This document shows, one piece after another, positions 7,193-27,969 of a stretch of DNA of 64,000 nt (position 1 is the first letter of the stretch; each line of letters starts with the position of its first letter). This DNA is from Archaeoglobus sp. UBA230 (GTDB lineage: Archaea; Halobacteriota; Archaeoglobi; Archaeoglobales; Archaeoglobaceae): NCBI GenBank assembly GCA_002507545.1, contig DAVR01000028.1, positions 1-64,000 on the forward strand. Direction: 5' to 3'. Both the position numbers and the translations under genes were made by a program. The notes below the pieces were generated by a model. That model did no database searches and was not told the origin of the DNA. It worked only from the letters and a program-made list of their open reading frames with translations.

Positions 7193-7694
7193 TCATAATG
7201 CATCACAATAGGGTTGGTAACCTGCGCAGCAACAACAAACAACGCAAGATGCAACGATTCCAGTTCCACTTGCTATTGCTCCTACTATCGCCGATGACAC
7301 TACCAAAACTTCTGTCTGGGCACATATGAGAGTGCATATTCCGATGTTAGCCATGAATTTTTCACAAACTGCGACTCCAAATTTGCTGCATACTGGCGTC
7401 ACGAAGAATAGCTCGCAGGCACCAGCACATGTCAAATCCTGCCAGCTGACTGGTTCATTGCAAACTTTGCCGCAAATATCCAGAACAACCGATGTTTGAA
7501 AGAATACCACATACCGCTCCAACCCAAGGACCTCCTGCAACCGCCCCTGCTAAACATAATATGGCGAATCCTGAACCGCATGTAACATTACACAAATAAG
7601 AGCAGCCACTGCTGTCAATAACGATAGCGGACCCCTCTCCCTCGACATTGTACTCAGCCAAGTCCCTTTCAACCTTCTCAGCCAGATCGTTCAA
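7193..7694 (-). pseudogene. Halocin C8-like Cys-rich peptide precursor (copy a), frameshifted
   Basis: A TTG at 7694 follows a good ribosome site (GGGAGGA, nine bases). The first frame gives VERDLAEYNVEGEGSAIVI, the same prodomain end as copy c (VERDLREYNVEGTGIAVVV), then a Cys-rich region ending prematurely. Removing one base from the three-T run at 7474-7476 restores CSGYCGKVCN and runs on through the second frame to the stop at 7193, with the late motif CEKFMANIGICTLIC matching copy c. Signal peptide and most of the prodomain are missing. A Gly/Ala/Cys-rich tail (VVCCCCAGYQPYC) is extra. Confidence 0.65.
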
Positions 7695-7725
7695 TTAAAT
7701 TCCTCCCTTGACCGTCATCTGTTAT

Positions 7726-8712
7726 TCATTTTTCTCTTATTTTTTGTCTTTTTTGTCTCGAGTAAACACCGACCCAGCTTGAGATAACAAGGAAAGGTTC
7801 AAAAATTACTGTAAATATATATCCAAGCCTGTACATCTCATGTAACCATTCTGCAAAGTAAGCGGTTCCATAAATTCTGTTCACAGCCATTACCCCAACC
7901 ACCATTCCGTAAATAAGTCCCAAGGGTCGAAAGACAGCTCCAGCTCTTCTTTCCATCGCCTTTCTCTCATTTTCATCCATGAGCCTCGTCAACTTCTCAG
8001 CGCCTCTCCTATCGACTTCTACCATCAGCGTAAAAATGAGAGCGACTATGAGGCTTAGTTCAACGCCTGTTTTTACGAGGTACATCCATCCGATCATCAT
8101 TGCGACAAATACCAGAGAAAGTCTTAACACTACAAAGATTTTCGTGAAAGTGTATTTGTGCGAGAGCATGTGGTAGTACCATTGCGTCAGAATAAAGATA
8201 AAGAGTCCCACTGCTACACTCTTCGGTAAATTCAATCCCGATAAATACGCTAAAAATCCGAGAGCGACAGCTACAGCCGCTTCAAGGATAAAACGTCTGG
8301 TAGAGTATGCAACACTACCGTCCCAATCCACTTTACTCTTTTTCACATACTTTACGTAGCCAAGAACGGCGAGAATTGTTGCAATTGAGGCTATGGCGAA
8401 ACTTTCTAACAAAGTTATAACGGCTATGTGGTGAATCCCAAGCGCAAGGATTATGCCGGAGAGGATTATGAAGAAAATGGTGATTTTGTCTCCACGAGAA
8501 AGCTTTTCTTTCCTCTCTTCTTTATTTTTTCTTGCAGCAATGCGCTTCTCCAACACATAGGCGGTATCAAAAAGAAGAGAGAAGCCTACTCCTCCTATCA
8601 AAGCTTTTTTAATTGGGAGCGAGAGCAAGAAGTAGAATGCTGCGGTTAAGATGATTGTTCCTATAATAAAATTTATAAAAACAATAAAAAATAAATTATT
8701 TCTATTCAACAT
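7726..8712 (-). CDS. Polytopic membrane protein, candidate immunity/transport partner of copy b
   Basis: 328 residues with about eight or nine hydrophobic helices and a charged cytoplasmic loop (ARKNKEERKEKLSRGDK, residues 59-75, and ENERKAMERRAG near 249). No family recognised. Its ATG overlaps the end of the halocin-like peptide copy b by seven bases and has a ribosome site (GAGGTGGT) inside it, so the two are co-translated. The same peptide-then-membrane-protein order recurs at copies c, d and f, which suggests immunity or export. Confidence 0.7.
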   Translation of the reverse strand: MLNRNNLFFIVFINFIIGTIILTAAFYFLLSLPIKKALIGGVGFSLLFDTAYVLEKRIAARKNKEERKEKLSRGDKITIFFIILSGIILALGIHHIAVITLLESFAIASIATILAVLGYVKYVKKSKVDWDGSVAYSTRRFILEAAVAVALGFLAYLSGLNLPKSVAVGLFIFILTQWYYHMLSHKYTFTKIFVVLRLSLVFVAMMIGWMYLVKTGVELSLIVALIFTLMVEVDRRGAEKLTRLMDENERKAMERRAGAVFRPLGLIYGMVVGVMAVNRIYGTAYFAEWLHEMYRLGYIFTVIFEPFLVISSWVGVYSRQKRQKIREK

Positions 8713-8942
8713 ACCACCTCACAAGCCCCTGTACAGGCTGGAACACACGCATATTTCTCACATAAATACGCTAATTCAGGTCCGACCAACCTTATACAGA
8801 TTGCTGAGCAAGTTCCAGCACAAAATCCACCGCTGCATGGGTCTACGTTCCCCGTACACCAGTAATTGCATGCTACACCAACGAGACTGCCCATTCCTGC
8901 TGTAACTCCACTCCTCAAAACCACCAACAACAGCAGGCTCAA
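8706..8942 (-). CDS. Halocin C8-like peptide (copy b), short form: signal-like start joined to mature end
   Basis: 78 residues from a TTG. Residues 1-18 (SLLLLVVLRSGVTA) look like the signal-peptide core of the sibling precursors (LLVLVVLG..). They run straight into the mature domain: ACNYWC, CSGGFCAGTCSAIC, LCEKYACVPACTGACEVVC, aligned with copy c. The whole prodomain and the first mature cysteines are missing. Either an internal-deletion relic or a minimal secreted peptide; the intact frame and coupling to the next gene keep the second option open. Confidence 0.55.
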   Translation of the reverse strand: MSLLLLVVLRSGVTAGMGSLVGVACNYWCTGNVDPCSGGFCAGTCSAICIRLVGPELAYLCEKYACVPACTGACEVVC

Positions 8943-9039
8943 CTTTCCAGCCGCATGCTATCGCTAATCGTTATTGCAAAAAAATGTATTTATGAATATC
9001 GGAAAGGGCATTTAGCCTTAAAAATCCCCAATAACGCAA

Positions 9040-9258
9040 TCAACAGTAAAAAGTGAAGAAGAAAACAGGCTGAATAACACTAAAAACTAGTTGTTGGTAA
9101 CTAGGAACGAGGCTGAGAGAATAAGCAAAACGGAAAAAAGTTCTACTTGCTCTTTCTTCAAGCAGTAATCCGATGACGTAAGCAAACGAGTACATTATGA
9201 AAATTATGAATAATACACATTTAAATAATAACTGCAAAAAGAAAGAGTATGGAAACAA
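9040..9258 (-). CDS. Possible small hydrophobic protein
   Basis: 72 codons from a TTG, with one strong hydrophobic helix (residues 5-32, LLFKCVLFIIFIMYSFAYVIGLLL) and a hydrophobic C-terminus. No family match and no clear ribosome site. It lies among small membrane genes of the same strand, which is the only support. Apart from it, 8943-9298 shows nothing. Confidence 0.3.
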   Translation of the reverse strand: MFPYSFFLQLLFKCVLFIIFIMYSFAYVIGLLLEERASRTFFRFAYSLSLVPSYQQLVFSVIQPVFFFTFYC

Positions 9259-9409
9259 ACGGAATCGGGATATATTTCAAAAAATTAGAATTGTTCATAG
9301 CTCAGCCCCCCATACACTGTGCGGCCATTGCACATGTATATATCCCCCAGAACTAAGCCGCGTGATTGTTAGCAGAGCGACAGCGACAAAGAGGGCGGTG
9401 AGATTACGA

Positions 9410-9535: not shown

Positions 9536-9552
9536 TGCAAACACCACGTGCT

Positions 9553-9933
9553 TTATTTCAAAAACAATTCTACCATCAGAAGCAAATTGACGAAAGAAAT
9601 CAGGGTATGAAGGAATAGATAGGCTCTTCCTTTCGAAATCATCCTTCCTGTCAAGCCGAAGAGAACATTCATAACCGTTATCTCGAGCATGGATTCGAAT
9701 AAATCATCACTTTTAAGCATTTCAAAAAGAACCTTCTGAAAGTGAAGCTCTTCTGGCTGAGAGATAGTTCTTACGAAAATTATCAGCAAAAGAATAAGCA
9801 AATTAGCCCAAATCCAGAATGAGAAGAAGCTATCCTCCAGCACAACTTTTCCTTTAATACTTCCGTAAATCTGGAGCGGAACAACAAAGAGGGAGAACGT
9901 GAAGAACAACAGAGGCGAGAAAGAGAATATCAT
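9553..9933 (-). CDS. Membrane protein, about three TM
   Basis: 126 residues; its ATG overlaps the end of the upstream 99-residue gene by four bases. Hydrophobic helices at about 1-23, 36-53 and 100-124, with a soluble loop containing PEELHFQKVLFEMLKSDD. No family recognised. Part of the chain of hydrophobic genes behind halocin-like copy c; likely an immunity, export or lipid-interacting component. Confidence 0.6.
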   Translation of the reverse strand: MIFSFSPLLFFTFSLFVVPLQIYGSIKGKVVLEDSFFSFWIWANLLILLLIIFVRTISQPEELHFQKVLFEMLKSDDLFESMLEITVMNVLFGLTGRMISKGRAYLFLHTLISFVNLLLMVELFLK

Positions 9934-10229
9934 GGTAAAAAAGGAGAGAACTCAACGATTACAGCCGGAAGATCACCGTAGTAGAAGATCAGAGTCCCAG
10001 TAAATGCTACAGGCACGAGGTGGAGGAAAGCGAGCCTCTTAAACTCGTATATGAAATTTTTATCGTTTTCAGCCATCTGCTCTAAAGCAATGTGAATTTG
10101 CCCTAACTCGTAGCCGTGCTGCCTGAGAAACCTTGGGAGGTTGAAAATGAGAGCGAGAATGAAGGGAATCGAAATCAGCAGAACCATAGCAATTCTCTCC
10201 GGAGTTATGTTCTCGGCTGGAATAGCCAA
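9930..10229 (-). CDS. Membrane protein, two TM
   Basis: 99 residues from TTG at 10229, three bases past the stop of the 21-residue frame. Helices at about 14-30 (AMVLLISIPFILALIFNL) and 66-90. No family recognised. ATGA coupling to the next gene places it in the copy c operon. Confidence 0.55.
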   Translation of the reverse strand: MAIPAENITPERIAMVLLISIPFILALIFNLPRFLRQHGYELGQIHIALEQMAENDKNFIYEFKRLAFLHLVPVAFTGTLIFYYGDLPAVIVEFSPFLP

Positions 10230-10301: not shown

Positions 10302-11348
10302 TCACCTCCGAATTCTCAGCAGCAGCAGAAGGACTGCCAGTATTAAAAATATGCTCAGCAACATTTCCTGACTCAATTGAACGATCAAAACTCCAAGCCC
10401 TGCAATAGCAGCGTTCGTCCAGAGGAGCCAGAAAATCGGACTCTTCATCGTGTTGGAACTTTTAACCGCACTTTCGAGCTGATCAAGAGAGTAACCGAAA
10501 GCCCTGAGGACGATTTCAGAGGCTACGAGCATCGCCGTAATGATAGTGGCGCCGGCGAGAATCCCTGTCAAGAGGTTTTCCGTAACGGAAAGTCTTCCCA
10601 GCATCTCCAAAAGAATAGCGTAACAGATAACGGGAGCGGAAAATTGTATTAGAGTGAGTAAAATCAGCAATTTCGACCTCGCAATCACCATCAAACGCCA
10701 GATTAGCCCGACGGAAAAGTTGATCACTGTTGAAAGGTAGAAAGCTCTTTGATGAGTCAGTAGGGTGTTCAGATGTGGCAGAGTGTCTTTTTCAGTTTCG
10801 CCGGCAGTCCAAACGGACACCAGTATTAGAACTAATCCCAAAACCGATAGTTGCATCCAGAATTCCGAGGAGCTGGCAGAGGTGCTGAGATCCTTCTTTA
10901 TAAACCTGTTGTAGAGGTAGAGAATCGTGACGAGAGGGAGTATGCAAATCTGGGAAAAAGGAATCAGGACGGCAAAAAAGACGATGAAAAACTTTAAAGC
11001 TAGCATTACATCTCCCCACTCCAGAACGGCTCCGCAAAGCAGTATGATGGCTGTAGGAAACCCGATAATTATGTAACCGATATTGAATGCCAAGTCTCTG
11101 TCTTCTTTGTTTAGTTTTGCAATTTCTCCTTCCTTGAGCTCCAGAATCCACATCATTCCTTCTTTAAACTTCAAACCTCTACGCTTGAAGAGCAGGTAGA
11201 TGGACAGGATTTCGAAAAATAAAAGGGTAGCCAGAACGATTAAAGCGAGAACAAGTCTTTCGGAGGATGGCTTGGAAACGGAAATGAAAGGAATAAGAGA
11301 TGCTCCGATATGAAGGGCGATTAGAAGAATCAAATTTCTTTTCCACAT
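10302..11348 (-). CDS. Polytopic membrane protein behind halocin-like copy c, candidate immunity protein
   Basis: 348 residues from the ATG at 11348, preceded at seven bases by GAGGTGAC; the TTG at 11366 lies before that site and is rejected. About nine hydrophobic helices, a charged loop (KRRGLKFKEG, LKEGEIAKLNKEDRD) after the second, and a C-terminal helix ending LRIRR. No family recognised. It is the first gene after copy c and has the same relative position as the 328-residue protein behind copy b. Halocin C8 producers protect themselves with the N-terminal part of the precursor, so a membrane immunity protein would be a different arrangement. Confidence 0.7.
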   Translation of the reverse strand: MWKRNLILLIALHIGASLIPFISVSKPSSERLVLALIVLATLLFFEILSIYLLFKRRGLKFKEGMMWILELKEGEIAKLNKEDRDLAFNIGYIIIGFPTAIILLCGAVLEWGDVMLALKFFIVFFAVLIPFSQICILPLVTILYLYNRFIKKDLSTSASSSEFWMQLSVLGLVLILVSVWTAGETEKDTLPHLNTLLTHQRAFYLSTVINFSVGLIWRLMVIARSKLLILLTLIQFSAPVICYAILLEMLGRLSVTENLLTGILAGATIITAMLVASEIVLRAFGYSLDQLESAVKSSNTMKSPIFWLLWTNAAIAGLGVLIVQLSQEMLLSIFLILAVLLLLLRIRR

Positions 11349-11382
11349 GGGTTTGTCACCTCTCAAAAATAAATTAAAAAAT

Positions 11383-12418
11383 TTATGGTAGTGCGTCGAG
11401 CGCGGCGCAAAGTTGTGGACAGAAAATGGGCTCTATGGCCTTCTGACACAATTCTGTTCCAACTGGGACGTATTTTTTGCATATTCCGTAAACTACTAGA
11501 TTGCAACCTCCTGAGCAACCTGCATTAGGCCAGTCTGGATCTTCGCCACATGCGTAATTGCAACCCACACCGCAGACAGCTGTCGAACCAATTGCACATA
11601 TTACTGCTCCTATCAAACCACCACCTATTACCGCGCAAACAGAGGTCATTGCCAATGAGCACGGTAACGAACAGAGGTGAGAGCAAGCTGAATAGTCATC
11701 TACTACTACAGCAATTCCCGTCCCTTCAACGTTGTACTCTCTCAAATCCCTCTCAACAACCCTGCTCAGATAGTTTAGCTCGTTCTTTGCTTTATTCCAC
11801 ACCCAAGAGGTATCTTCATGCTTCCTTATCTCGTTTAACACCTTAGCAAGAATCCTGTAGTGCTCGGCAAGCGTAGTCTTGGATTTGATCTCTATGATGT
11901 CGGCAAAGGGAGCAAACTTCTTCTTCTCATCCTTAGGAGCAACGCTTATAGTCGTGACGAAGTGGTTCTCGCTGCCGATTTCCATTATCCTCGTCACAAG
12001 GCTGAGGTTGTAAGTTGCGGTTTCTGCAAAGTAGCTGAGGAGGTGGAACTTATAGCTCGCGGTCTCGTTGTAAATTCCTCACCTCCAGAAACTTCAGCTC
12101 TTTCCAGTTATTTGAGCTGTTAAAAAGCTCATTTATTTCTATCTGGTAATCAAAAGTCAAGCAACTCCCATCTGTACAGCTGAAACTTCCATTGAAGTTC
12201 TTAGCGAACCACTCGCTCAGGCTTTGGTTGACCTCAGCTACGTTTAGAATCGGTTTTCCGTTCTTAGCCAATTCCACTTCGACAACTCTCTTTAGTGTTA
12301 TCTCGCATGCCCCGCAACTGCACTCGGTCGCTTTGCTTGCAGCCATCGCTGGACTCACTACGTTGCTTAACACCACCAAAACCAACAACAGGCAAACAAA
12401 CTTTTGCCCAACCTTCAT
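11383..12418 (-). pseudogene. Halocin C8-like precursor (copy c), one frameshift
   Basis: The ATG at 12418 follows GGATGTGAT. Signal peptide residues 1-26 (FVCLLLVLVVLSNVVSPAMA), then the Cys triad TECSCGAC shared with copy d, then the prodomain. The frame stops at 12050, but deleting one T from the run at 12072-12076 continues smoothly (NYNETASYKFHLLSYFAETATYNLSLVTRI) to the stop at 11383. The C-terminal about 100 residues carry 14 cysteines (SACSHLCSLPC, VCGVGCNYAC, AGCSGGC, CPQLC). Prodomain ends VERDLREYNVEG as in copy a. The indel is in a homopolymer, so read error or phase variation are both possible. Confidence 0.7.
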
Positions 12419-12427
12419 CGAATCACA

Positions 12428-12515
12428 TCCTTGCCTTGTCATCACGTAACTTAAGACTTTTGCTATCATAGTGATATATATCCAAAATGTTAATATTGAA
12501 ATGTGCTAATACGAA
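12428..12515 (-). promoter_or_regulatory. Island promoter module, copy 1
   Basis: This stretch is nearly repeated at 15662 and 18132. On the minus strand it contains AATATTAACATTTTGGATATATATC, i.e. a near-palindrome AATRTTAAYATT immediately upstream of a TATA box (ATATATA), then about 55 bases of leader ending in the ribosome site GGATGTGAT of copy c. Homology with the other copies ends just past the TGCTAATAC on the far side. The rest of 12516-12844 holds nothing I recognise. Confidence 0.6.
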
Positions 12516-13524: not shown

Positions 13525-14499
13525 TCAAAACATAGATTCTGCAATCTTCAAAATTTCTTCCTTGTTAAGCTTTCCTGCTATCGTAATCTCCAAGTTGTTT
13601 ATCGGGAATTTCAGCATTCTGCTGCCAAAGATTTCCGCTAGCTCCCCATCAACATTCTTTATTTTCACCTTCTTTGCATTTGGCAAAGGTTTGCTTTCAC
13701 CACTCTCACCAATTCGTTCTGATATAACCATAACATTATCACCCTTCTTGTAGTAGAGTTGAGCCATACCCATGAAAACCATAGCATAATTAAATTCAAA
13801 GCCTGCTGTGTATGATGGGACAAGGATTGTGAAGTTAACTCGCTTTTGGACTTCTTCAATCGTAAGCTTCTCCGGCAGTTTAAATTCCTTCTCAACAATC
13901 TTCGCTCCTTCAGGAGGCTTGAACTCGAATTCTTCATCGCTTATTCCAGCGTTGAACTCTACGTTTTTGTATTCTACTGTTGAGCTGAAGTTTCCATAGT
14001 TTATTTCTATTTTTAAAGGATACCAGTATTCCTTGTCAACCCAGAGCTTTTGATTAATGAAGTAATCTTTACCTTTCGGTTTTAACTCGATAACATAACA
14101 ATTCCTGTTTGAGATTTTATCTTCTCCCACAAGCTCTATATCGTATTTTTCGAGCATGTCTTTTACAATTTTACCGTAATCAAATTCTGGCTGTTTGACT
14201 TCTGGAAGGTTGAACTTTGCCACCTCATTCTTTTGCTTATCGTAGATCCACATGGTTTTGCCGTTGGAGATTGTTAGTATGTTTTCATCTTCAGTTTTCC
14301 ACTTGTTAGGCTTTTTCATTGCAAATTTTGTGGTTTGAGTTTGTTGTTTTCCTAAATTTGTGGTTACAATCATCACTCCTTTCATGTCTTTGGTGGAGTT
14401 GTACTTCTCCTTCATCTTCTCTACTATCTGCTCGGCAGAGAGTTGGATGCAGGCGAGAAAGATCGTAGTTATAGTTAAAACTATTAGCACTTTTCTCAT
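13525..14499 (-). CDS. LolA-like secreted protein (outer-membrane-lipoprotein-sorting fold)
   Basis: 324 residues. N-terminal signal (VLIVLTITTIFLACIQLSAEQI) with a Cys after the hydrophobic core that may be lipidated. The body resembles LolA/LppX-fold proteins: QIVEKMKEKYNSTKDMKGVMIV, TMWIYDKQKNEVAKF, YWYPLKIEI, GISDEEFEFKPPEGAKIV. These bind lipids in a half-barrel. It is coupled (ATGA) to the membrane protein behind halocin-like copy d. A truncated paralog with the same neighbour lies at 27433. A lipid- or peptide-sequestering immunity role is plausible inference. Confidence 0.7.
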   Translation of the reverse strand: MRKVLIVLTITTIFLACIQLSAEQIVEKMKEKYNSTKDMKGVMIVTTNLGKQQTQTTKFAMKKPNKWKTEDENILTISNGKTMWIYDKQKNEVAKFNLPEVKQPEFDYGKIVKDMLEKYDIELVGEDKISNRNCYVIELKPKGKDYFINQKLWVDKEYWYPLKIEINYGNFSSTVEYKNVEFNAGISDEEFEFKPPEGAKIVEKEFKLPEKLTIEEVQKRVNFTILVPSYTAGFEFNYAMVFMGMAQLYYKKGDNVMVISERIGESGESKPLPNAKKVKIKNVDGELAEIFGSRMLKFPINNLEITIAGKLNKEEILKIAESMF

Positions 14500-14901: not shown

Positions 14902-15660
14902 TTAACAATATCCCTCACATCCCGAGTGTATGATACATGCAATCCAGTTCCCAAGTCTGCACCGGGCATCCATAGCAATACAGAAGGGGTCGCCCCACTC
15001 TTGCTCTCCACATTTACCTACACAGCACATGCCTTTACCTATGCAAAGTGCGCAACCGATGCAGGCGGCTATGCCCAGGGGATTCGGCCCACATGCTGCA
15101 CACGTAATAGCACATGCCGGTACTTCCCATCCTATGCAAGCCCATAAACACGTCGAAAACCCTGAAGTAGTGGTTGTGACTCGTAAATTTCCGTCGGAGT
15201 CTACATAGTAGATTTTCTTTAAAACAACATCACTTTTCTTCTGTAATTCTATTGCATAACTCTCAATGTGGCCATCTGAAATAAATGCAATAACTCCTGC
15301 TAATTTATTGTGCTCCACTTTAAAAGGAATTACTACAAGGAGTCCAGTTCCATAACTCGTGAATATCTTAGAGATCCTAGTTTTAGTGAGATCCTGTTTG
15401 TACCCTTTCTTTGCTAACACACCTATCAGTTTCTTCACGTCTTCATTCGTCAAGGCCTTCGCCAACACCTTGTTCTTCTCCAACCCCTTAAGCTCGAAAA
15501 CAGCCACATTCTTGTTCTCCAGGTTTGAACAGCTGTTGCAACTCCTACATTCGGTTTGTTTATTACTCACAGCCATCGCTGGCATTATTATGTTCCCTAA
15601 CACCACCAAAACCACCAGCAGAGCAACAAACTTTCTTGCCACCCCCATCTTAATCCCCAT
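14902..15660 (-). CDS. Halocin C8-like Cys-rich peptide precursor (copy d), intact
   Basis: 252 residues from ATG at 15660 (or 15648). Signal peptide FVALLVVLVVLGNIIMPAMA, then Cys triad TECRSCNSC, prodomain of about 140 residues (TSYGTGLLVVIPFKVEHNKLAGVIAF; DGHIESYAIEL), then a C-terminal domain of about 85 residues with 16 cysteines (CLWACIGWEVPAC, CAACGPNPLGIAACIGCALC, MCCVGKCGEQEWGDPFC, ending SGCEGYC). This is the halocin C8 plan: secreted precursor, release of a disulfide-rich, heat-stable antimicrobial peptide. The antimicrobial role here is inference. Promoter module copy 2 lies just upstream. Confidence 0.75.
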   Translation of the reverse strand: MGIKMGVARKFVALLVVLVVLGNIIMPAMAVSNKQTECRSCNSCSNLENKNVAVFELKGLEKNKVLAKALTNEDVKKLIGVLAKKGYKQDLTKTRISKIFTSYGTGLLVVIPFKVEHNKLAGVIAFISDGHIESYAIELQKKSDVVLKKIYYVDSDGNLRVTTTTSGFSTCLWACIGWEVPACAITCAACGPNPLGIAACIGCALCIGKGMCCVGKCGEQEWGDPFCIAMDARCRLGNWIACIIHSGCEGYC

Positions 15661-15661
15661 C

Positions 15662-19575: not shown

Positions 19576-19584
19576 CGGCACCCC

Positions 19585-20415
19585 TCATATGTTATCTTCA
19601 AGGTACTCTATCAAGCCTTTCGTGTACCCAGCCACTTTCTTGACGAGGAATTGAGTCGTTTGCTTCAGCTTCGCTTCATCTTTTATGTAAGGCACTGGAA
19701 CGTTGTTTACCCAGTACACTCCTATAGCTGAATCCAGATCATCCTTGTACCAGTAGGACATAAACGCCAGATCTTTAACGGCCTTCTGTGGATCTGTTAC
19801 AGTTATTTTCGGTGCATTGTAAGCAATATCATCAAGATTCCAGTCGTCCCACTTGCTGTACACGACTTGCTCGTAAAAATCGTGTCTGACCTTATTTTCT
19901 GCAGGATTTCCCGTAAAGAGATTTGAGTGGTATGGGTTACCGACATCCATTAAGTAATGGGAGGCTCTTCCCAAATCCAAATATGCTTCCGTGTATTTGC
20001 CATTCTGGGCGTAGTTAATCGCACTTTCCACTTTTTCGTTACATGCTTGTGGAGCACTTCCGAATCTGAATACTGGGTCATAGACATGCTTGCAAAGTCT
20101 TTCGGGACACCAAGGTGGCCACCAAGCCGAATCCTCCTCATCTGGAAGCTTTGACCCAAGTTTAAAGTTCGATAAGTTGCTTCCGCTTATACCCATGTAG
20201 TTGCCAGTTTTCTCTGCAATGAGCATGTGTGTGGACTGTGCCCACTTTACTTCAACTCCATCATCCGTGTGTGGCCAATATTCTAATAACTTCTTTATCA
20301 GCTCTGGAGATATTTTTGGAGATTTTTCAGAGATTTTGCTGGTATCTTTTGCAGCCATTGCTGGACTTACTGCACTTCCTATTGTCGCTAACACTAACAT
20401 CACAGCGCTTTTCAT
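19585..20415 (-). CDS. Secreted zinc-dependent phospholipase C-like enzyme (short form)
   Basis: 276 residues. Signal peptide (VMLVLATIGSAVSPAMA), a Trp/His N-terminal site (WAQSTHMLIAE near 58) and the zinc motif HYLMDVGNPYH (HxxxDxxxPxH, near residue 152), then a late DFYEQVVYSKW. This is the bacterial phospholipase C/S1-P1 nuclease fold, three zinc ions in an all-helical protein. Substrate could be lipid or nucleic acid. Its ATG overlaps the previous gene's stop (ATGA) with GGGGGTGAG as ribosome site. In a peptide-toxin island a lytic role is plausible. Confidence 0.75.
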   Translation of the reverse strand: MKSAVMLVLATIGSAVSPAMAAKDTSKISEKSPKISPELIKKLLEYWPHTDDGVEVKWAQSTHMLIAEKTGNYMGISGSNLSNFKLGSKLPDEEDSAWWPPWCPERLCKHVYDPVFRFGSAPQACNEKVESAINYAQNGKYTEAYLDLGRASHYLMDVGNPYHSNLFTGNPAENKVRHDFYEQVVYSKWDDWNLDDIAYNAPKITVTDPQKAVKDLAFMSYWYKDDLDSAIGVYWVNNVPVPYIKDEAKLKQTTQFLVKKVAGYTKGLIEYLEDNI

Positions 20416-20981
20416 CTCACCCCCTCACGTAAATTTATGATCCACGCACTAACAAAAAACAATCCAAAAATTGTAGCTATTAATTGAAACAGTCCATAAA
20501 ATAAAAGCAAACTTTCTCTGATTAAATGGTGCTCTGTGAAAAGCACGTCATAAGCTGAAGGTATCAATATCAAAGCAGAGTAGAGCAGTACAAATACTGA
20601 AAATCCTGCAACAGCCAGTTTTCCTACATCGATATTGCTGTAGAGAAAAATCGAAGCGCATATCATTAAACCAGACAGTAGAGAGTATTCGATCACAGCA
20701 AAACTGTCGTGAGTTGGGAAAAAGTTTGGGAATAATCCGTAGGTTGATATCAAGAGTGCATAAGCCAGAAGAGAAACTGCAAAGGGTATAGCAGATTTCT
20801 TATTCTCCACCTCCATGCTTAGAAAAATCAAACCAATCAGTGAGATTACTGCAAGCAAACCTCCGAATTCATAGGAAGACATTTTTGGAGACACTATGTA
20901 AATCGGAACGTTCATAAACACTATTGAAGTTAAAAACGATGAAATAAGAATTTTAAAAAATTTGAGAGTTAATTTTGGCAT
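20412..20981 (-). CDS. Six-TM membrane protein between the two phospholipase-like genes
   Basis: 189 residues with about six hydrophobic helices, short loops, no recognised family. Starts four bases after the P-domain enzyme's stop (site GGGTGAC) and is coupled by ATGA to the short enzyme. Position suggests immunity or membrane protection against the lipolytic enzymes. Confidence 0.65.
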   Translation of the reverse strand: MPKLTLKFFKILISSFLTSIVFMNVPIYIVSPKMSSYEFGGLLAVISLIGLIFLSMEVENKKSAIPFAVSLLAYALLISTYGLFPNFFPTHDSFAVIEYSLLSGLMICASIFLYSNIDVGKLAVAGFSVFVLLYSALILIPSAYDVLFTEHHLIRESLLLFYGLFQLIATIFGLFFVSAWIINLREGVR

Positions 20982-20985: not shown

Positions 20986-22347
20986 TCACCCTATCAGCAC
21001 GTAGAAGTCTGTTATTTTGCCCTGATCTCCGCTCCAAGCATCGTAAACTCTTAACCTCCAGTCATAATTCGATGGAGTTAACCAGAAATAGTGCTGTATT
21101 GTTATATGGTTATTATTGCCCCAATCATGATCCCAGACCTTTGTCTCTATATATGAGTTCTGGTAAGTTCTCTTGTAGCCTATCCAAACCTCTAAATCTG
21201 CTGGATAAGTGTGGTCTATCTCTACAATTGCCAAAACCTGATCGCTACAGGCAACATCATTTATGTTGACATAGGAAGTCTGATGATCGTAGATTGGGAC
21301 ATAATTGGAACCTGCAGTATCTGGCGATTCAAACTTGGTAGCGTAAACGATCATACCCATTGTATATTTTATAGTTTCACTTATTAGCGTTCTCGTAATG
21401 CTCTTCAATTGTTCATTTAATTGCTGGTTGTTTTTCCATCCTAGTGTATTCATTATATCGCAGATCTGCTGCAAGTATTGATGTGAGAAGGCTGCAAGGT
21501 TTTTTGCATCTTCGCTTGGATCTGTGATGATGTAATATTCATCAACATACATTGCTGATTTTAACTCGCTCCAGTGGCTGCTGACCCAGCTCTCATACTC
21601 TGTATGGTGAGCTTGACCATAAACCGACGAGGTGTGGAAAGGATTTCCTAAATCCTCAATGTAGTGTAGAGCTTTTCCAATGTATATATACGCTTCCTCA
21701 ACATTTCCCTGCTCAAATTGTGCTCTGGCTTTGTTTAAGTATAGCTCTAAAGAGTCTGGACCGTAATTATCGTATCCTGGTACAGGAACATCTCCAATCA
21801 CCCAACTGTGCCTATTCAAACCCCACCAAGGAACAAGCTCAGTTGGTTCCTTTCTATGATCGTCAGCCCAAGTAGCATAGCTTTTTAATGTATCCATATG
21901 GGCACCCGTCACATAATTCAAGTTGTCTCCGGCAGTATAGGACATATCCTCATGAGTACCGTAGCCCCATAGAATTCCAACATCTCCTGGAGATTCCGTT
22001 GCTATAGTTATGTAGTACGCTATACTCTGCAAAATTTTGGTTTGTTCTTCTTTAGATAACTTTGAATTTCCTCTGTATATCTTTTTTGCTTCGTTGATTA
22101 TTCTGTTCTTTTCTTCTTCAGTTAGATCGTACATTGCATATTTTACAAATTTCCAGTCTTCTTCACTCGGTATAAGCTTTTTAGCCGGTTTTGTTATCTT
22201 CGGCGGTTTAACTGGTTTTAAATTTGCAAATGTGGTTTTAATTGGTTGTTTTTGATCTACCATTCTTGGTTTATCCGCAATCACTGGCACCACTACACTC
22301 CCTAACACTACCAAAACTAGCAGTAGTGCAGCTAACTTCCTCAACAT
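20986..22347 (-). CDS. Secreted phospholipase C-like enzyme with C-terminal P-domain
   Basis: 453 residues from the ATG at 22347 (ribosome site GGGGTGAT); 22371 would precede that site. Signal peptide LAALLLVLVVLGSVVVPVIA, close to that of the halocin-like precursors. Catalytic domain: THEDMSYTAGD near 142, NRHSW near 190 and zinc motif HYIEDLGNPFH near 239. The last about 105 residues look like a proprotein-convertase P-domain/jelly roll (LAIVEIDHTYPADLEVWIGY, WRLRVYDAWSGDQGKITDFYV). Expression lies under operator array 1. Confidence 0.75.
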   Translation of the reverse strand: MLRKLAALLLVLVVLGSVVVPVIADKPRMVDQKQPIKTTFANLKPVKPPKITKPAKKLIPSEEDWKFVKYAMYDLTEEEKNRIINEAKKIYRGNSKLSKEEQTKILQSIAYYITIATESPGDVGILWGYGTHEDMSYTAGDNLNYVTGAHMDTLKSYATWADDHRKEPTELVPWWGLNRHSWVIGDVPVPGYDNYGPDSLELYLNKARAQFEQGNVEEAYIYIGKALHYIEDLGNPFHTSSVYGQAHHTEYESWVSSHWSELKSAMYVDEYYIITDPSEDAKNLAAFSHQYLQQICDIMNTLGWKNNQQLNEQLKSITRTLISETIKYTMGMIVYATKFESPDTAGSNYVPIYDHQTSYVNINDVACSDQVLAIVEIDHTYPADLEVWIGYKRTYQNSYIETKVWDHDWGNNNHITIQHYFWLTPSNYDWRLRVYDAWSGDQGKITDFYVLIG

Positions 22348-22382
22348 TTTATCACCCCACTGACAATTCACACACTTCTAAA

Positions 22383-22402: not shown

Positions 22403-22482
22403 ATCAACTAAAAATTTTAGTCAGTAACTAAACAATTTAGACGGTAACTAAAAAGTTTAGATGAGAACTAAACCTCTAATTG
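22403..22482 (-). repeat. Tandem operator array 1 (four 20-bp units)
   Basis: Units start at 22403, 22423, 22443 and 22463, an exact 20-bp period. Core is AACTAAA-N3-TTTAG, an inverted repeat CTAAA/TTTAG; the fourth unit is degenerate. The array abuts the TATA stretch of the phospholipase-like gene. Two helical turns per unit would line up bound regulators on one face of the DNA. Confidence 0.8.
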
Positions 22483-22486: not shown

Positions 22487-22873
22487 TCAAATAAATAGAT
22501 TAACTTTCATGAATTTGAAAATGAATTTAAAGCATGGAATGGACAGTAAAGTACAAAAAGATTTCAATCCTGCCATTTTCTTTCCGTCCAATGCACAGCT
22601 CTGTATAGCAATAAATATATAAGCGAGATAACCACCAAAACAGCACTCCAGAACACTCCACAGCTTTTCCTGTCCGATATAGAGTGGAAATACGGCAGTG
22701 TATGTGATTATCGCTATCACGGAGATGGAGGCAATTGCTGAGAATACCTCAAGGTTCTCTTCGGTGTGTATTGCCATGCTTACGCTGATTAGTGTAAAAA
22801 AGAGTGTTAGAAAGATACTTCTCTCCAAGAACTCAACACTAATCCACTTCATCGCATACTTGCCCAACTCCAA
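22487..22873 (-). CDS. Small three-TM membrane protein, candidate immunity protein
   Basis: 128 residues from TTG at 22873, or 121 from ATG at 22852 (KWISVEFLERSIFLTLFF). About three hydrophobic helices with motifs IITYTAVFPLYIGQEKLWSVLECC. The neighbour at 23288 has ITYTTIVPPYIKQEDFRLWSGVFW, so the two are clearly related. The first codons line up with the end of halocin-like copy f (ECLELGKY against ECFEWGTT), so this gene follows the debris of another peptide copy. Confidence 0.6.
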   Translation of the reverse strand: MELGKYAMKWISVEFLERSIFLTLFFTLISVSMAIHTEENLEVFSAIASISVIAIITYTAVFPLYIGQEKLWSVLECCFGGYLAYIFIAIQSCALDGKKMAGLKSFCTLLSIPCFKFIFKFMKVNLFI

Positions 22874-22916: not shown

Positions 22917-23267
22917 TCACCTCAAGCGTTTTTTAATTTTCAGGTATGCAAGGTGCAGTGCAAATCCAACAGCCCATAAAAGCAAAATGTAAGAAGTCCT
23001 CTCGTCGTAATATATTGAGAGAAAGTAACCGGTTACAAATGCAGCAATTACCGACAGATCTCTTCTCTCGTCCTCCTGCAAATGCGTGTATCTCTCAACT
23101 AGAAAATACACTAAGGTGAATGCTGAGAGCATCACCGCACCAAACAGCTCCATTTCGAGGGCATCCTGAGGGTAACCTGCCATGTACACGAGTAAACTTA
23201 CTAGAGACCAAGCTAAGAAAATTAAAATCGTCCTGAGGTAAATATTTGGCATTCTTGTTAACTTCAT
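22917..23267 (-). CDS. Small four-TM membrane protein, candidate immunity protein
   Basis: 116 residues, good ribosome site (GGGGAGGAA). Hydrophobic helices at about 10-28, 40-56, 68-84 and 90-108. Loops contain LQEDERRDLSVIAAF and YYDERTSYILLLW, a layout shared with the two flanking small membrane proteins (charged xxDRR then TM then YI..). Three in a row after copy f suggests a stacked immunity set. Confidence 0.6.
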   Translation of the reverse strand: MKLTRMPNIYLRTILIFLAWSLVSLLVYMAGYPQDALEMELFGAVMLSAFTLVYFLVERYTHLQEDERRDLSVIAAFVTGYFLSIYYDERTSYILLLWAVGFALHLAYLKIKKRLR

Positions 23268-23656: not shown

Positions 23657-23657
23657 A

Positions 23658-24365
23658 TCAATCCCAGCTTGCTTCCTCGCATGTTGTTCCCCACTCAAAG
23701 CACTCGATACATCCCTCCAAAGTTATACAGACCGGACAAATAACAAAAACACACAGGGCACAGGATTTAGGTCCACCCATGCAAGCAAGAACACAGCTGT
23801 AACCACAGCACGTCCGTATGCAACTCATATCAACATTGCCATCACAGCAGGTCAGAACACACTCCTCCATGGGGTAATAGGGACAATCACTATCTTTTGA
23901 ACACTCATGCGGGCACGAATCCAATGTTGTTACATGCCCGTTAATACTTACAGCTTCTGTTTTTATTCTGCTTCCGTTCACACTGAGCAGGTAGGCTAAA
24001 CTCCTAACACCTTCCACAGACTCTGAAAACTCGTAGTACGCCAGAACCTTATCGTTTTTCAGAGGAATACCGATCGCAACCATGTCTATTTTCTCACCCC
24101 TATACTCAACCTCGTGCTTAACAACCTTAACTCCTCGGTATTCTATCTCCCATGGCTTCGCCAGACTTCTGATGTCTCTACTCGCAATCGCTTTTACAAG
24201 CACTTCCACCACAGATATCTCCTTTGGAGTTTTACTCAGTGGCTTAACTTCTCTAAATACACTTACACATCCGGTAACATCTGGCTCTTTTTGAAACTGG
24301 GCATAAGCTGTAAGTGTGCCAGCCATCACCAAAACCAACAGCAGTGCGACCATCTTTTTTACCAT
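23658..24365 (-). CDS. Halocin C8-like Cys-rich peptide precursor (copy f), intact
   Basis: 235 residues, ATG at 24365 after GGGTGAT. Signal peptide MVALLLVLVMAGTLTAYA, prodomain with EYRGEKIDMVAIGIPL and KVLAYYEFSESVEGVRSLAYLL (same plan as copy d), then a C-terminal domain of about 85 residues with 18 cysteines (SCPHEC, CVLTCC, CIRTCCGYSC, CALCVFVICPVC, GCIECF). Different mature class from copies a-d but same precursor design. Under operator array 2. Target unknown; function as an antimicrobial is inferred from the halocin C8 resemblance. Confidence 0.75.
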   Translation of the reverse strand: MVKKMVALLLVLVMAGTLTAYAQFQKEPDVTGCVSVFREVKPLSKTPKEISVVEVLVKAIASRDIRSLAKPWEIEYRGVKVVKHEVEYRGEKIDMVAIGIPLKNDKVLAYYEFSESVEGVRSLAYLLSVNGSRIKTEAVSINGHVTTLDSCPHECSKDSDCPYYPMEECVLTCCDGNVDMSCIRTCCGYSCVLACMGGPKSCALCVFVICPVCITLEGCIECFEWGTTCEEASWD

Positions 24366-24422: not shown

Positions 24423-24542
24423 ATCAACTAAAAATTTTAGTCGGTAACTAAACGGTTTAGACGGTAACTAAAAAGTTTAGATTGGAATTAAAAAGTTTAG
24501 ATGGAGGCTAAAAAGTTTAGTTGGGAATTAAGCTTCCAGTCC
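24423..24542 (-). repeat. Tandem operator array 2 (six 20-bp units)
   Basis: Units begin at 24423, 24443, 24463, 24483, 24503 and 24523. Units 1-3 read AACTAAA-N3-TTTAG; units 4-6 vary in the left half (AATTAAA, GGCTAAA). Immediately downstream is the same A/T TATA stretch as at array 1. The DNA beyond the far end (24541-24640) also matches 22484-22560, so a larger block was duplicated. Confidence 0.8.
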
Positions 24543-24869: not shown

Positions 24870-24923
24870 GTCAACCTCATGCTCTCACCGTGCACACCTG
24901 TGTTCGCTATATATACTTTTCGA

Positions 24924-24983
24924 AAATAAAAATTTTAGTCGACAACTAAACAGTTTAGACGTCAACTAAACCTTTAACCAAGT
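24924..24983 (-). repeat. Tandem operator array 3 (three 20-bp units)
   Basis: Units begin at about 24924, 24944 and 24964, again 20 bp apart, with TAAA-N3-TTTAG cores. It sits between the FilR1-type regulator's 3' end and the collapsed cassette, in the place of that cassette's promoter. Confidence 0.7.
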
Positions 24984-25029
24984 TGGAAAAACTGGCAAGG
25001 TTCAGACGGGCTCATTACGAGGTAAAAAA

Positions 25030-25827
25030 TCACCTCCGAAGAAGCTCATTCAGTTTTGACCTGTCAATTAGCTCGGAATTTCCTCTGACGAACTCAAACA
25101 GATCGTTTCCCCAGCGAACCGCATTCCCTCTGCAAACAAAGTCGCGCATGTAATCAAAAACACCGGTTTTCAGATAGAATGAAATCAGAAGATGTGAGTC
25201 CGTGACAATGAACGCAAATCTGTACCTCTCTCTCGATACGTATAACCTAACGTTGTCAAAACTCAAACCACTTTCCAGCTCTCTCGGGAAATCAGAAAGT
25301 ATACGGCTGAAAACTTCTCCAGTCATGATCAGGTCAATCTTAACTCCTCTTTCAGCCAGTTCCAGAAAGAAATCAACGTACTCATTGAAAAAAACAGGCG
25401 TATAACCCATTATAGCACTCGTGCTGGAAGTTATGGAAAAGAACTTTCGGTGCGGCTCCACAAAATTCTCGTTGTTGTGAATTACTTCAATTGAGTCGAG
25501 TTCGTAGAACCTCGAGATCAACCAGTCCGGGATGTCTGCCAGTTCGAACTCGTTAGAAAGATCTCCGAACTTCTCAAAGAACCTGCTGAACTTCAGCAAA
25601 ACCCTGTGAACTTCGAGTGCAATCTTTCCCTTAGGCAAAACCTTTATAGTATCTCTTTTCCTCTCAACAAGCCCCAACCTCTCAAGATCTCTGATAATCT
25701 GGGTTAAATGCGATGGAGTAAGTTTCAGCTCGCCCTCAACGTAACTCCTCGTTGCGTCCGGTTTCAGAATCTTCAGCACATCCATTTTCCGTGGAGAATT
25801 GAGTAGGTTCATTAGCTCCATACTCAC
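25030..25827 (-). CDS. FilR1-domain (DUF1724) winged-helix transcription regulator
   Basis: 265 residues. N-terminal winged helix, residues 5-75 (RKMDVLKILKPDATRSYVEGELKLTPSHLTQIIRDLERLGLVER), then the FilR1-type sensor domain: SIEVIHNNENFVEPHRKFF, GYTPVFFNEYVDFFLELAERGVKIDLIMT, and a C-terminal SFYLKTGVFDYMRDFVCRGNAVRWGNDLFEFVR. The domain is common in methanogen and Archaeoglobus regulators. It heads the island's minus-strand genes next to three operator arrays and is the natural candidate to bind them. Confidence 0.8.
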   Translation of the reverse strand: MSMELMNLLNSPRKMDVLKILKPDATRSYVEGELKLTPSHLTQIIRDLERLGLVERKRDTIKVLPKGKIALEVHRVLLKFSRFFEKFGDLSNEFELADIPDWLISRFYELDSIEVIHNNENFVEPHRKFFSITSSTSAIMGYTPVFFNEYVDFFLELAERGVKIDLIMTGEVFSRILSDFPRELESGLSFDNVRLYVSRERYRFAFIVTDSHLLISFYLKTGVFDYMRDFVCRGNAVRWGNDLFEFVRGNSELIDRSKLNELLRR

Positions 25828-25914
25828 ACACTGATTAGCTAACTTAGATATAAATTTTACCGTGGAAAGTTAAATCAAAACAGAAATAGATCCGGACTGA
25901 GGCAGACTACCATC

Positions 25915-26743: not shown

Positions 26744-27364
26744 TTAGAAGCTACAGGATAGACTTGCAACAACCTGAAGGAATGAAAGCAGAAGCATTAC
26801 AAAAACACCAAAGAACGTCAGAACGTAATAAATCTGGCTTCTGTATTCCTGCTTGATTGCGTAGGCAAAGAATGAGGAGAAGAGGATGAAGAACAGAGTT
26901 GATGAAGAAAACAAAACGAGATCCTTAACATCAGTCAGAATCCAAGAGGCCAAGAATACAACATAGGATGATGCTATGACTGCAAGCTGAACAATAAGGG
27001 ATTTCACCGATATTTCCTTTTCCTTAATCTTTCTTACCTTTGCTCTCAGCTCAACACCATCATAATACTTTGCAATACACCAAGAAACTTTATTGCATTC
27101 TGGACACTTGAGAAGCTTGTAGTATGTTTGGTGTGGGCTGAAAAAGAATGCGGTTGCTGAAGTTTTGAAGATTTTTCCGCATTCCGGACATAAAAATTCG
27201 ATTTTCTCTGCCATCTGTCTCAGGAGTACGTACAATCCTGCTGCAAGAATAAAGAAGGATAAGTAGGTGAACTCAGGGGCAAATTGTACTGTTAGTATTA
27301 AAGCGATTAAAAATGGGATTATTAGGAGTAGTACTTTTCTTACAACAATTCCCAGTAGATCCAT
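26744..27364 (-). CDS. Membrane protein with central zinc ribbon
   Basis: 206 residues from the ATG at 27364. Two N-terminal helices (about 8-30 and 34-48), then a cytoplasmic zinc-ribbon of CPECGKIF and CPECNKVSWC (CxxC pairs about 33 residues apart), then three helices toward the C-terminus. No named family. The frame is intact although surrounded by debris. Confidence 0.6.
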   Translation of the reverse strand: MDLLGIVVRKVLLLIIPFLIALILTVQFAPEFTYLSFFILAAGLYVLLRQMAEKIEFLCPECGKIFKTSATAFFFSPHQTYYKLLKCPECNKVSWCIAKYYDGVELRAKVRKIKEKEISVKSLIVQLAVIASSYVVFLASWILTDVKDLVLFSSSTLFFILFSSFFAYAIKQEYRSQIYYVLTFFGVFVMLLLSFLQVVASLSCSF

Positions 27365-27432
27365 GAGTGGCACTTTGAGTCTAAAAACTTAATTTTTTTG
27401 CTATTCTTGCTCAGCTACAAAAAGCCGCAGTC

Positions 27433-27576
27433 TCAGCGAGGACGATTGAAGAACAGCTGAGCAGGTGTTTGATGGGCTTCGTAGCGTTTCTGCATCTCCT
27501 TCGCTATCTCCTCTGCAGTCAGTTGCGTGCATCCGAGGAGGAGCAGGACTAAAATCAGCAACGCAAATTTCCTCAC
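27433..27576 (-). pseudogene. LolA-like lipoprotein, truncated
   Basis: GTG at 27576 overlaps the previous stop (GTGA). 47 codons: lipoprotein signal with lipobox LLLGCTQ, then TAEEIAKEMQKRYEA, matching the start of the 324-residue LolA-like protein at 14499 (SAEQIVEKMKEKYNS). It ends early in unrelated codons, so only the N-terminus survives. Confidence 0.6.
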
Positions 27577-27887
27577 TCAACCACCTCCTGCAGTCTCTGA
27601 TTCAGGTAGAGATGTACCCAGAAGATGATGACCAGAGCTCCTACAAGATCGCGGAGGCTGAGTTGGGGAAGAGCTACCCACCCATACGCTTGGGCAAACA
27701 CTGCAGAAAGTGACATCAAAACAGGGATTTTGAATATGACGAAGAGCTTTGATTTCACCTTTTCTTTACCCATTAGTAACTCAGATGTAGGTATGGCAAT
27801 TGAAATGGCAAAGGCTACATAAAAGTTCAAAAAAGAGAAAAACAAGATTGGAGCCTCTTCGGAGATTATTTTTCTAAGTAGACCCAC
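27573..27887 (-). CDS. Small membrane protein, paralog of the copy d partner
   Basis: 104 residues from GTG at 27887 with a strong site (AAGGAGGTGG). Three hydrophobic helices, C-terminus LNQRLQEVVE. Like its relative at 14496 it is followed, overlapping, by a LolA-like gene and preceded by the end of a halocin-like peptide. Still intact while both neighbours are broken, as expected if immunity is retained after loss of the toxin. Confidence 0.55.
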   Translation of the reverse strand: MGLLRKIISEEAPILFFSFLNFYVAFAISIAIPTSELLMGKEKVKSKLFVIFKIPVLMSLSAVFAQAYGWVALPQLSLRDLVGALVIIFWVHLYLNQRLQEVVE

Positions 27888-27899
27888 TTAGCCACCTCC

Positions 27900-27962
27900 T
27901 TAAAAGATACAGTTGTCCTGGCATCCCATGTTCACCACACAAGCTCCAAGCTGACCCAAAAC
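27900..27962 (-). pseudogene. Halocin C8-like peptide, C-terminal remnant (copy g)
   Basis: The last codons before TAA at 27900 read LGACVVNMGCQDNCIF, which lines up with the end of copy d (LGNWIACIIHSGCEGYC). Everything upstream is lost; the UPF0173 gene begins the conserved chromosome a few bases on. It marks the edge of the island. Confidence 0.5.
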
Positions 27963-27969
27963 CAAAAAT

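What the first reader, a model, noticed from the sequence alone, without database searches (positions are those of the whole stretch)
7193..27967. Multi-copy halocin C8-like peptide island with paired membrane proteins
Seven loci (a 7193, b 8706, c 11383, d 14902, e 15833, f 23658, g 27900) carry signal peptide/prodomain/Cys-rich plan or parts of it. Copies b, c, d, f and g are each followed directly, often overlapping, by hydrophobic genes. Halocin C8 is established as a Cys-rich archaeal antimicrobial in haloarchaea; that this hyperthermophile uses the same plan in a large, diversified arsenal is inference. To my knowledge such an array with separate candidate immunity genes is not described in detail.
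Basis: partly seen in the sequence, partly recalled or inferred. Interest (0 to 1): 0.92.

Follow-up and report, generated by a model that had tools for sequence, protein, structure and literature searches.

The report
Archaeal toxin island with swappable warheads
An archaeon carries a cluster of genes for secreted, cysteine-rich, probably toxic peptides, most of them now broken, in which the peptide end and the membrane gene behind it appear to be exchanged together between relatives under a shared genetic switch, suggesting how archaea arm and rearm against each other.

Summary
Seven places carry the plan or pieces of it, but only d (14902-15681) and f (23658-24365) are intact. Copy c is split between two frames; a, b, e and g are C-terminal remnants. 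Copies b, c, d, f and g are followed by membrane genes. Direct membership in the halocin C8 profile fails: a/c-type and b C-termini are at best distant relatives, d and f C-termini show none. The link is real at family level: the c-type and d-type prodomains carry genuine C8 domains in other genomes.

Three findings go further. (1) One prodomain bears different C-termini, and the downstream membrane protein follows the C-terminus: 6 of 9 related C-terminal pairs have related partners, 0 of 69 other pairs do. Displaced cassettes sit downstream. (2) 21 of 28 C8-domain precursors found in 392 genomes have a small membrane ORF behind them, against 14/256 and 33/273 control genes. (3) f and a phospholipase-like gene share arrays of CTAAANNNTTTAG at 20-bp spacing, present in 18 of 55 family genomes.

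Best reading: polymorphic secreted toxins with cognate membrane immunity and co-regulated secreted proteins. Killing and immunity are untested.

The parts
23658..24365 (-). copy f, intact precursor (235 aa): signal peptide, own prodomain, C-terminal domain with 18 Cys
   Evidence: one distant relative in G025; C-terminus not related to C8
23288..23698 (-). first of three small membrane genes behind f; likely start ATG at 23656, one base after f's stop
22917..23267 (-). second small membrane gene behind f (116 aa, 3 hydrophobic segments)
22487..22873 (-). third small membrane gene behind f (128 aa, 2 hydrophobic segments)
24428..24520 (.). operator array of f: palindromes CTAAANNNTTTAG at 20-bp spacing
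24926..24978 (.). further palindromes between regulator gene and f
25030..25827 (-). regulator, FilR1_middle (PF08350, 1.2e-29) with winged helix; upstream of precursor genes also in G003:C6, G006:C9 and G018
22408..22460 (.). operator array in front of the 461-aa phospholipase-like gene
20986..22371 (-). secreted protein with a sub-threshold Zn_dep_PLPC match (461 aa; 17.3 bits, cut-off 26.8), same signal-peptide type as the peptides
20412..20981 (-). membrane partner (189 aa, 6 hydrophobic segments) behind the 461-aa protein
19585..20415 (-). second secreted protein with a sub-threshold Zn_dep_PLPC match (276 aa; 24.8 bits, cut-off 26.8); homologue near a c-type peptide gene in G007
18910..19581 (-). 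partner of the 276-aa protein (223 aa, one membrane anchor); two copies follow its homologue in G007
14902..15681 (-). copy d, intact precursor (likely start 15648): prodomain of a type that carries C8 domains in other genomes, C-terminus with 16 Cys not related to C8
14496..14864 (-). membrane gene behind d (open frame reaches 15011); homologues behind the d-type genes of G023 and G032
13525..14499 (-). LolA-like lipoprotein (PF17131, 1.2e-13), third gene of the d cassette; also behind peptide genes in G018, G023, G007, G201, G178 and G218
15833..16036 (-). copy e, C-terminal fragment of an f-type gene (78% identical to f)
11383..12469 (-). copy c, precursor read in two overlapping frames; intact homologue in G003
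10302..11366 (-). membrane partner of c (354 aa, ~10 hydrophobic segments); 44% identical partner behind the c homologue in G003
9930..10229 (-). small ORF with one hydrophobic segment behind the c partner
9553..9933 (-). small membrane ORF (3 hydrophobic segments) behind the c partner
8706..8957 (-). copy b, orphan C-terminus without signal peptide or prodomain
7726..8712 (-). membrane partner of b (328 aa, ~8 hydrophobic segments); 25% identical to the partner behind the b-type gene of G005
7193..7694 (-). copy a, orphan C-terminus beginning in the last part of the prodomain, broken across two frames; no partner found behind it
27401..27960 (-). copy g remnant (by eye): last ~20 codons, 104-aa membrane ORF (27573-27887) and short lipoprotein-like ORF
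12475..12498 (-). shared 24-base promoter element in front of c, identical to that of d, one base different from 18179-18202
15707..15730 (-). shared promoter element in front of d
18179..18202 (-). same promoter element in front of the Tat-signal protein and metallopeptidase-like genes

Best explanation
The island is a polymorphic secreted-toxin locus. A precursor leaves the cell by its signal peptide, its prodomain is removed, and the Cys-rich C-terminus, held together by disulfides, attacks the membrane of related archaea. The gene directly behind it encodes a membrane protein that protects the producer from that one C-terminus; for d a LolA-like lipoprotein may help. C-terminus and partner are exchanged together against a constant prodomain, and displaced cassettes remain downstream as orphans. 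A FilR1-type regulator is the likely reader of the CTAAANNNTTTAG arrays and would control the peptide f together with secreted phospholipase-like proteins. Shown from sequence: architecture, modular C-termini, co-variation of partner and C-terminus, orphan cassettes, arrays and their place. Inferred: secretion, cleavage, disulfides, killing, immunity, and binding of the regulator.
For: Prodomains of c-type precursors are 43-84% identical (some over only about 50 residues) while their C-termini differ. Of 78 pairs of 13 loci, 9 have related C-termini (E < 1e-10), 6 have related partners (E < 1e-3), and all 6 are among the 9; 0 of 20000 label shuffles match this. The first analysis of 10 loci gave 5 of 8, 13 of 20000 shuffles. 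Displacement: in G143:C9 a different C-terminus with its own 66-aa membrane ORF interrupts a precursor, and the remainder with the old C-terminus and old partner follows; G026:C10 has the uninterrupted form with the same C-terminus and partner, both 94% identical. G005 and G006 also have a full-length gene first and an orphan with its own partner behind. 21 of 28 C8-domain precursors are followed by a 40-200 aa ORF with two or more hydrophobic segments, against 14 of 256 and 33 of 273 control genes. Of genes with the conserved signal peptide outside the window, 19 of 22 are followed by a membrane gene, against 46 of 441 others. Arrays: 18 of 55 family genomes; 14 of 25 arrays examined have a gene with such a signal peptide starting within 110 bases. 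Genomes with the close regulator mostly have arrays (12 of 14; 18 of 55 overall; p 2.9e-6), and four arrays lie beside regulator-like genes, two of which were checked and are of HVO_A0261/FilR1 type. The regulator gene lies in front of a precursor in 4 genomes including this one.
Against: No activity, secretion or cleavage has been tested. 3 of 9 related C-terminal pairs have no detectable relation between their partners. 7 of 28 C8 precursors lack the small ORF by my rule, although one has a 59-aa ORF just under the rule and one a larger 7-segment protein. Only 6 of 15 peptide-bearing genomes (a set drawn by hand) have arrays. The reversed palindrome itself occurs 5 times in this genome against 12 for the palindrome. 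5 of 7 copies here are broken or partial. Hydrophobic segments were counted by a simple hydropathy rule and genes by a crude caller. Related genomes are not independent, so the p-values are optimistic.
Confidence: 0.66

Rival explanations
1. Halocin C8-style one-gene immunity: the prodomain itself protects the producer, and the membrane genes behind are exporters, processing factors or assembly helpers.
For: For halocin C8 one gene is reported to give both toxin and immunity protein HalI (passages read in PMC11509114, and PMC8628083). The locus whose C-terminus I recognise from memory as halocin C8 (L046) has no small membrane ORF behind it, nor by my rule have two loci that look like its relatives by eye (L060, which has a 70-aa ORF with one segment, and L068).
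Against: The c-type prodomain stays the same while C-termini change, which does not suit a matching immunity protein. It has no detectable similarity to six prodomains of haloarchaea-like C8 precursors (at most 1%). The membrane partner, not the prodomain, follows the C-terminus. A general exporter would not be expected to vary with the cargo.
Confidence: 0.12
2. Secreted Cys-rich proteins with a non-antagonistic role (metal binding, envelope structure, signalling) with a membrane receptor or anchor.
For: Cys-rich secreted proteins and co-encoded membrane receptors also fit signalling; no toxicity is shown. Arrays and a dedicated regulator fit a regulated physiological role.
Against: Patchy distribution (c-type prodomain at E < 1e-10 in 10 of 55 family genomes), many broken copies, different C-termini on one prodomain, orphan cassettes, and halocin C8 domains on the same prodomains.
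Confidence: 0.13
3. A decaying island with no present function in this strain; remnants of transferred cassettes.
For: a, b, c, e and g are broken or partial.
Against: d and f are open and have partners. The f and 461-aa gene promoters keep exact operator palindromes; eight of the twelve exact palindromes of the genome lie in the island. The c and d promoter elements are identical over 24 bases.
Confidence: 0.07

Closest known systems
Halocin C8 (TIGR04449 halocin_C8_dom; HalC8/HalI, ProC8)
   Same: Signal, prodomain, Cys-rich C-terminal peptide at the very end of the precursor; c-type and d-type prodomains bear C8 domains in other genomes.
   Different: Window copies fail the profile cut-off; d and f C-termini unrelated by profile comparison; separate membrane partner; no twin-arginine signal seen by eye in d or f; more Cys (16 and 18 against 10, the latter recalled).
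Polymorphic toxin systems (Zhang et al. 2012, PMC3482391; start of abstract seen in the listing, rest recalled)
   Same: Constant N-terminal part, variable C-terminus, partner gene matched to the C-terminus, displaced standalone cassettes.
   Different: Small Cys-rich peptide-like warheads and a plain signal peptide; no large delivery protein seen; membrane partners.
Archaeal conflict systems surveyed by Makarova et al. 2019 (mBio 10:e00715-19; not held here, content recalled)
   Same: Recalled: the survey expands the halocin C8 family in diverse archaea. It is cited for a regulator, arCOG02808, near archaeocin genes (PMC8416519, passage read).
   Different: Whether it describes the partner genes, the cassette exchange or the operator arrays could not be checked.
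Sulfolobus spindle-shaped virus toxin B310 with downstream membrane gene C108 (PMC8628083, passages read)
   Same: Secreted archaeal toxin with a small membrane gene directly downstream.
   Different: There the authors suggest the toxin may act as its own protective factor; viral; no similarity was tested.
VARTIG modules of Thermococcales (PMC8416519, passages read)
   Same: Hypervariable protein with matched downstream membrane proteins.
   Different: Immunoglobulin-domain proteins; no Cys-rich peptides mentioned in the passages read.

Membership tests
Halocin C8 family (TIGR04449) | C-terminal domain above the curated cut-off (24 bits) | tested here: not met
   best window copy 13.2 bits; own genome no match at E <= 0.001. 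Relatives with the same prodomain types meet it
Halocin C8 family (TIGR04449) | distant similarity of the C-terminus by profile comparison | tested here: inconclusive
   set of window c, G003 c and G006 a 53-77%; b 2-32%; d and f at most 2%
Halocin C8 family (TIGR04449) | architecture: signal, prodomain, Cys-rich peptide at the C-terminal end | tested here: met
   d and f in the window; c-type in G003, G005, G006
Halocin C8 family (TIGR04449) | prodomain related to HalI | tested here: inconclusive
   c-, d- and f-type prodomains against six prodomains of haloarchaea-like genomes: at most 1%; d-type is related to the prodomain of C8 precursors of G178, G218 and G244 (98%)
Halocin C8 family (TIGR04449) | antimicrobial activity and self-immunity from one gene | not testable with these tools
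   needs bench work
Polymorphic toxin system | constant N-terminal part with exchanged C-termini | tested here: met
Polymorphic toxin system | partner gene specific to the C-terminus, directly downstream | tested here: met
   6 of 9 related C-terminal pairs against 0 of 69 others, by homology only; protection itself not tested
Polymorphic toxin system | orphan C-terminus cassettes downstream of a full-length gene | tested here: met
   G005, G006, G026:C7, G143:C9; in the window b and a lie behind c, itself split between frames
Polymorphic toxin system | known toxin domain (nuclease, etc.) or dedicated large delivery module | tested here: not met
   no Pfam domain above cut-off in the peptides; plain signal peptide
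FilR1-type regulator | PF08350 middle domain with winged helix | tested here: met
   1.2e-29, over the cut-off; winged-helix matches below their cut-offs
FilR1-type regulator | binds CTAAANNNTTTAG arrays | not testable with these tools
   co-occurrence and adjacency only

The most novel reading that the evidence does not exclude
Halocin C8-type archaeocins as a whole are mostly two-gene, cassette-swapping toxin and membrane-immunity systems, of which the one-gene halocin C8 is the exception. In Archaeoglobaceae they belong to a regulon, read from 20-bp-spaced palindrome arrays, that also fires secreted phospholipase-like and peptidase-like effectors, each with its own membrane partner.
Probability: 0.42. 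Interest if true: 0.87.

Novelty: new variant of a known kind. Interest (0 to 1): 0.72.

Why it matters
If true, it supplies separate, testable immunity genes for a toxin family whose model member is described as self-immune. It shows cassette exchange, known as the engine of bacterial toxin diversity, at work in peptide toxins of archaea. It also gives a sequence tag (the operator array and the shared signal peptide) by which an uncharacterised arsenal of secreted archaeal proteins and partners can be listed genome by genome. Peptides of this kind, if stable to heat, may also be useful.

Tried and rejected
Direct profile search of window copies gave nothing above a cut-off for the peptides (Pfam and NCBIfam on all but g; PHROGs and PADLOC on d and f, and PHROGs on G003 c). 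The regulator had only weak PADLOC CARF matches. AlphaFold on the intact c homologue of G003 (7 rows) gave mean pLDDT 60.8. Foldseek against the PDB had no match at E <= 0.001, and the second alignment had no Z above 5.3: no fold can be named and none is excluded. The metallopeptidase-like protein at 16898-17536 was considered as the maturation enzyme because its operon shares the c/d promoter element. It has no homologue at E <= 1e-5 in the other 54 family genomes, so it is not a general maturation factor. Plasmid origin: no near match of 22000-28000 in the plasmid collection. RNA families: none at the gathering score. Papers: ten searches listed no paper that, by title or start of abstract, treats halocin C8-like peptides in Archaeoglobus, small membrane partners of the C8 family, or the arrays. 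The library holds open papers only and the most relevant survey was not held, so absence from print is not claimed.

Rows dropped before counts; the d-type pair was removed. Not entered were the f-type, window a (no partner), the decayed a-type locus of G007, G026:C7, the inserted cassette of G143:C9, the G000:C27 locus and other fragments; control genes are at least 100 aa, with Cys-rich ones left out; the window and duplicate loci were left out; 25 of the 27 array places were examined; G201:C25 and G009:C104 (two mismatches each) were not.


Full report
WHAT IS THERE. The window is G000:C28:1-64000 of a 2.27-Mb draft genome. Named relatives found by sequence are Archaeoglobi, Archaeoglobales and Archaeoglobaceae assemblies. 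One congener, G005, is a single contig of 2,178,400 bases, which I recall as the size of A. fulgidus VC-16. From 28.6 kb down to 7.2 kb most long frames run on the minus strand. d and f are intact precursors. c is in two frames, while G003 has an intact homologue of about 340 aa. a is broken, while G006 has an intact homologue. b, e and g are 3' parts. Membrane genes follow b, c, d, f and g. Behind d, and in short form behind g by eye, comes a LolA-like lipoprotein.

RELATION TO HALOCIN C8. TIGR04449 has matches over its cut-off in 24 of 392 genomes of the phylum, six of them in this family, but none at E <= 0.001 in this genome. The c-type prodomain carries a C8 domain in G005 and G290, and in G003:C6 and G026:C9 in another frame. 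The G007 protein itself scored 24.4 bits and 22.0, around the cut-off. C-termini of window c, G003 c and G006 a together are distantly linked to C8 (53-77%) and b to c (64%); d and f C-termini are not linked. So the island belongs to the same world as halocin C8, but the copies here cannot be filed as members of that family.

MODULES. Prodomains of c-type precursors are 43-84% identical whatever they carry. Partners follow the C-terminus: c with c (73% C-terminus, 44% partner), b with b in three genomes (60-63% C-terminus, 25-85% partner), and the shared C-terminus of G026:C10 and G143:C9 (both parts 94%). Across 13 loci, 6 of 9 related C-terminal pairs have related partners and none of the other 69 pairs does; 0 of 20000 shuffles reach this (first version with 10 loci, 13 of 20000). 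Three related pairs lack a partner relation at the threshold: two of C8-type genes with short partners, and c of G003 with a of G006 (partner E 0.024). G006 carries a full-length a-type gene with an 8-segment partner, then an orphan b C-terminus with its partner. G005 has a full-length b-type gene with partner, then a C8 orphan that begins inside the prodomain and overlaps the partner's stop. The window has c with partner and two small ORFs, then orphan b with partner, then orphan a. In G143:C9 a different C-terminus with its own 66-aa membrane ORF interrupts the precursor after about residue 72 of the prodomain, and the displaced remainder with old C-terminus and old partner follows; G026:C10 shows the undisturbed state. 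This is the logic of polymorphic toxins.

PARTNERS IN GENERAL. Of 28 C8-domain precursors, 21 are followed by an ORF of 40-200 aa with at least two hydrophobic segments starting between -60 and +150 of the stop. Outside Archaeoglobaceae it is 15 of 22, against 14 of 256 control genes from the same neighbourhoods; in Archaeoglobaceae 6 of 6, against 33 of 273 control genes, which include other effector genes with partners. Those without are L046, L047, L051, L056, L060, L066 and L068. L047 has a 59-aa ORF just under the rule and L056 a 363-aa protein with 7 segments. L046, which I recognise from memory as halocin C8 itself, has none, in keeping with its reported one-gene immunity (PMC11509114, passages). 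A LolA-like protein also follows in C8 loci of G178 (two), G218 and, weakly, G302; the G302 piece has no Pfam match of its own.

SIGNAL PEPTIDE AND OTHER EFFECTORS. The signal peptide of the precursors recurs on other secreted proteins of the family: proteins with Zn_dep_PLPC matches below the Pfam cut-off, a C39-peptidase-like protein over the cut-off, and a protein with only a weak Bacteriocin_IIc match. Of 22 such genes of at least 150 aa outside the window, 19 are followed within 100 bases by a gene with two or more hydrophobic segments, against 46 of 441 other genes and 14 of 52 others with a single N-terminal hydrophobic segment. In the window the two PLPC-like proteins (20986-22371, 19585-20415) are followed by a 6-segment protein and by a singly anchored one. 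The second pair recurs in G007 near a c-type prodomain piece with an a-type C-terminus.

REGULATION. The promoters of f and of the 461-aa PLPC-like gene share palindromes CTAAANNNTTTAG spaced 20 bases apart. The window has 9 exact sites against 0.2 expected. The genome has 12 (5 for the reversed control pattern), of which 8 are in the island and one lies in front of a broken PLPC-like gene. Tandem pairs with up to 2 mismatches occur in 18 of 55 family genomes; the reversed control occurs once each in 3. Of 25 arrays whose surroundings I examined, 14 have a gene with the conserved or a similar signal peptide starting within 110 bases. Four stand beside regulator-like genes in genus g6, of which two were checked and belong to the HVO_A0261/FilR1 type. 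Three end at contig ends. The remaining four are the second cluster in front of f, one before a secreted protein with another signal peptide, and two without an evident target. Homologues of the regulator at 25030-25827 at E <= 1e-40 occur in 14 of 55 genomes, 12 of which have arrays (p 2.9e-6). Against this, only 6 of 15 peptide-bearing genomes have arrays, so other switches must exist. c, d and the operon of a Tat-signal protein and a metallopeptidase-like protein share another promoter element, identical over 24 bases or one base off.

MECHANISM. Most likely the precursors are secreted and cut, the Cys-rich C-termini act on membranes of relatives, and the adjacent membrane protein, with a lipoprotein in the d type, gives protection matched to the C-terminus. 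Modularity, co-variation, cassette displacement and arrays are shown from sequence; secretion, cleavage, killing, protection and regulator binding are inferred. The protease that matures halocin C8 is itself said to be unidentified (PMC12893001, passage). The fold of the c-type precursor could not be assigned.

NOVELTY. Expansion of the halocin C8 family in archaea (recalled) and a regulator near archaeocin genes (as cited in PMC8416519) are already in print (Makarova et al. 2019, not held). My ten searches listed nothing on cassette exchange, matched membrane partners or operator arrays for this family, but that library is partial. I therefore file it as a new variant of a known kind.

Noticed in passing
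16233-18126: Operon of a Tat-signal protein (192 aa), a metallopeptidase-like protein with HELAH motif (PF13688 5.5e-5, below cut-off) and a 222-aa secreted protein, sharing the c/d promoter element; the peptidase has no homologue at E <= 1e-5 in the other 54 family genomes.
   Followed up: partly
12845-13406: AF2212-like protein and PIN-domain protein (PF01954, PF01850), a likely antitoxin and toxin pair, on the plus strand between c and the d cassette.
   Followed up: partly
26744-27373: Membrane protein of 209 aa with a CxxC...CxxC zinc-ribbon-like stretch, between the regulator and the g remnant; only weak family matches.
   Followed up: no
L087, L172, L224, L238 beside the arrays: By eye a similar membrane protein (start like MRHVYVSLPTAVS) is read away from several operator arrays, opposite the effector gene; no Pfam match for the L238 piece.
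   Followed up: partly
L072 (G000:C27) about 7372-9700: A second degenerate locus of this genome with the signal peptide, a c-type prodomain piece and a piece clustering with the b-type partner.
   Followed up: partly
L225, L227, L229: Three operator arrays lie within about 150 bases of contig ends, suggesting that these repeats break draft assemblies and hide effector genes.
   Followed up: no
58848-59297: Minus-strand frame with tandem CFSSI-type repeats, perhaps the antisense of a repetitive protein.
   Followed up: no
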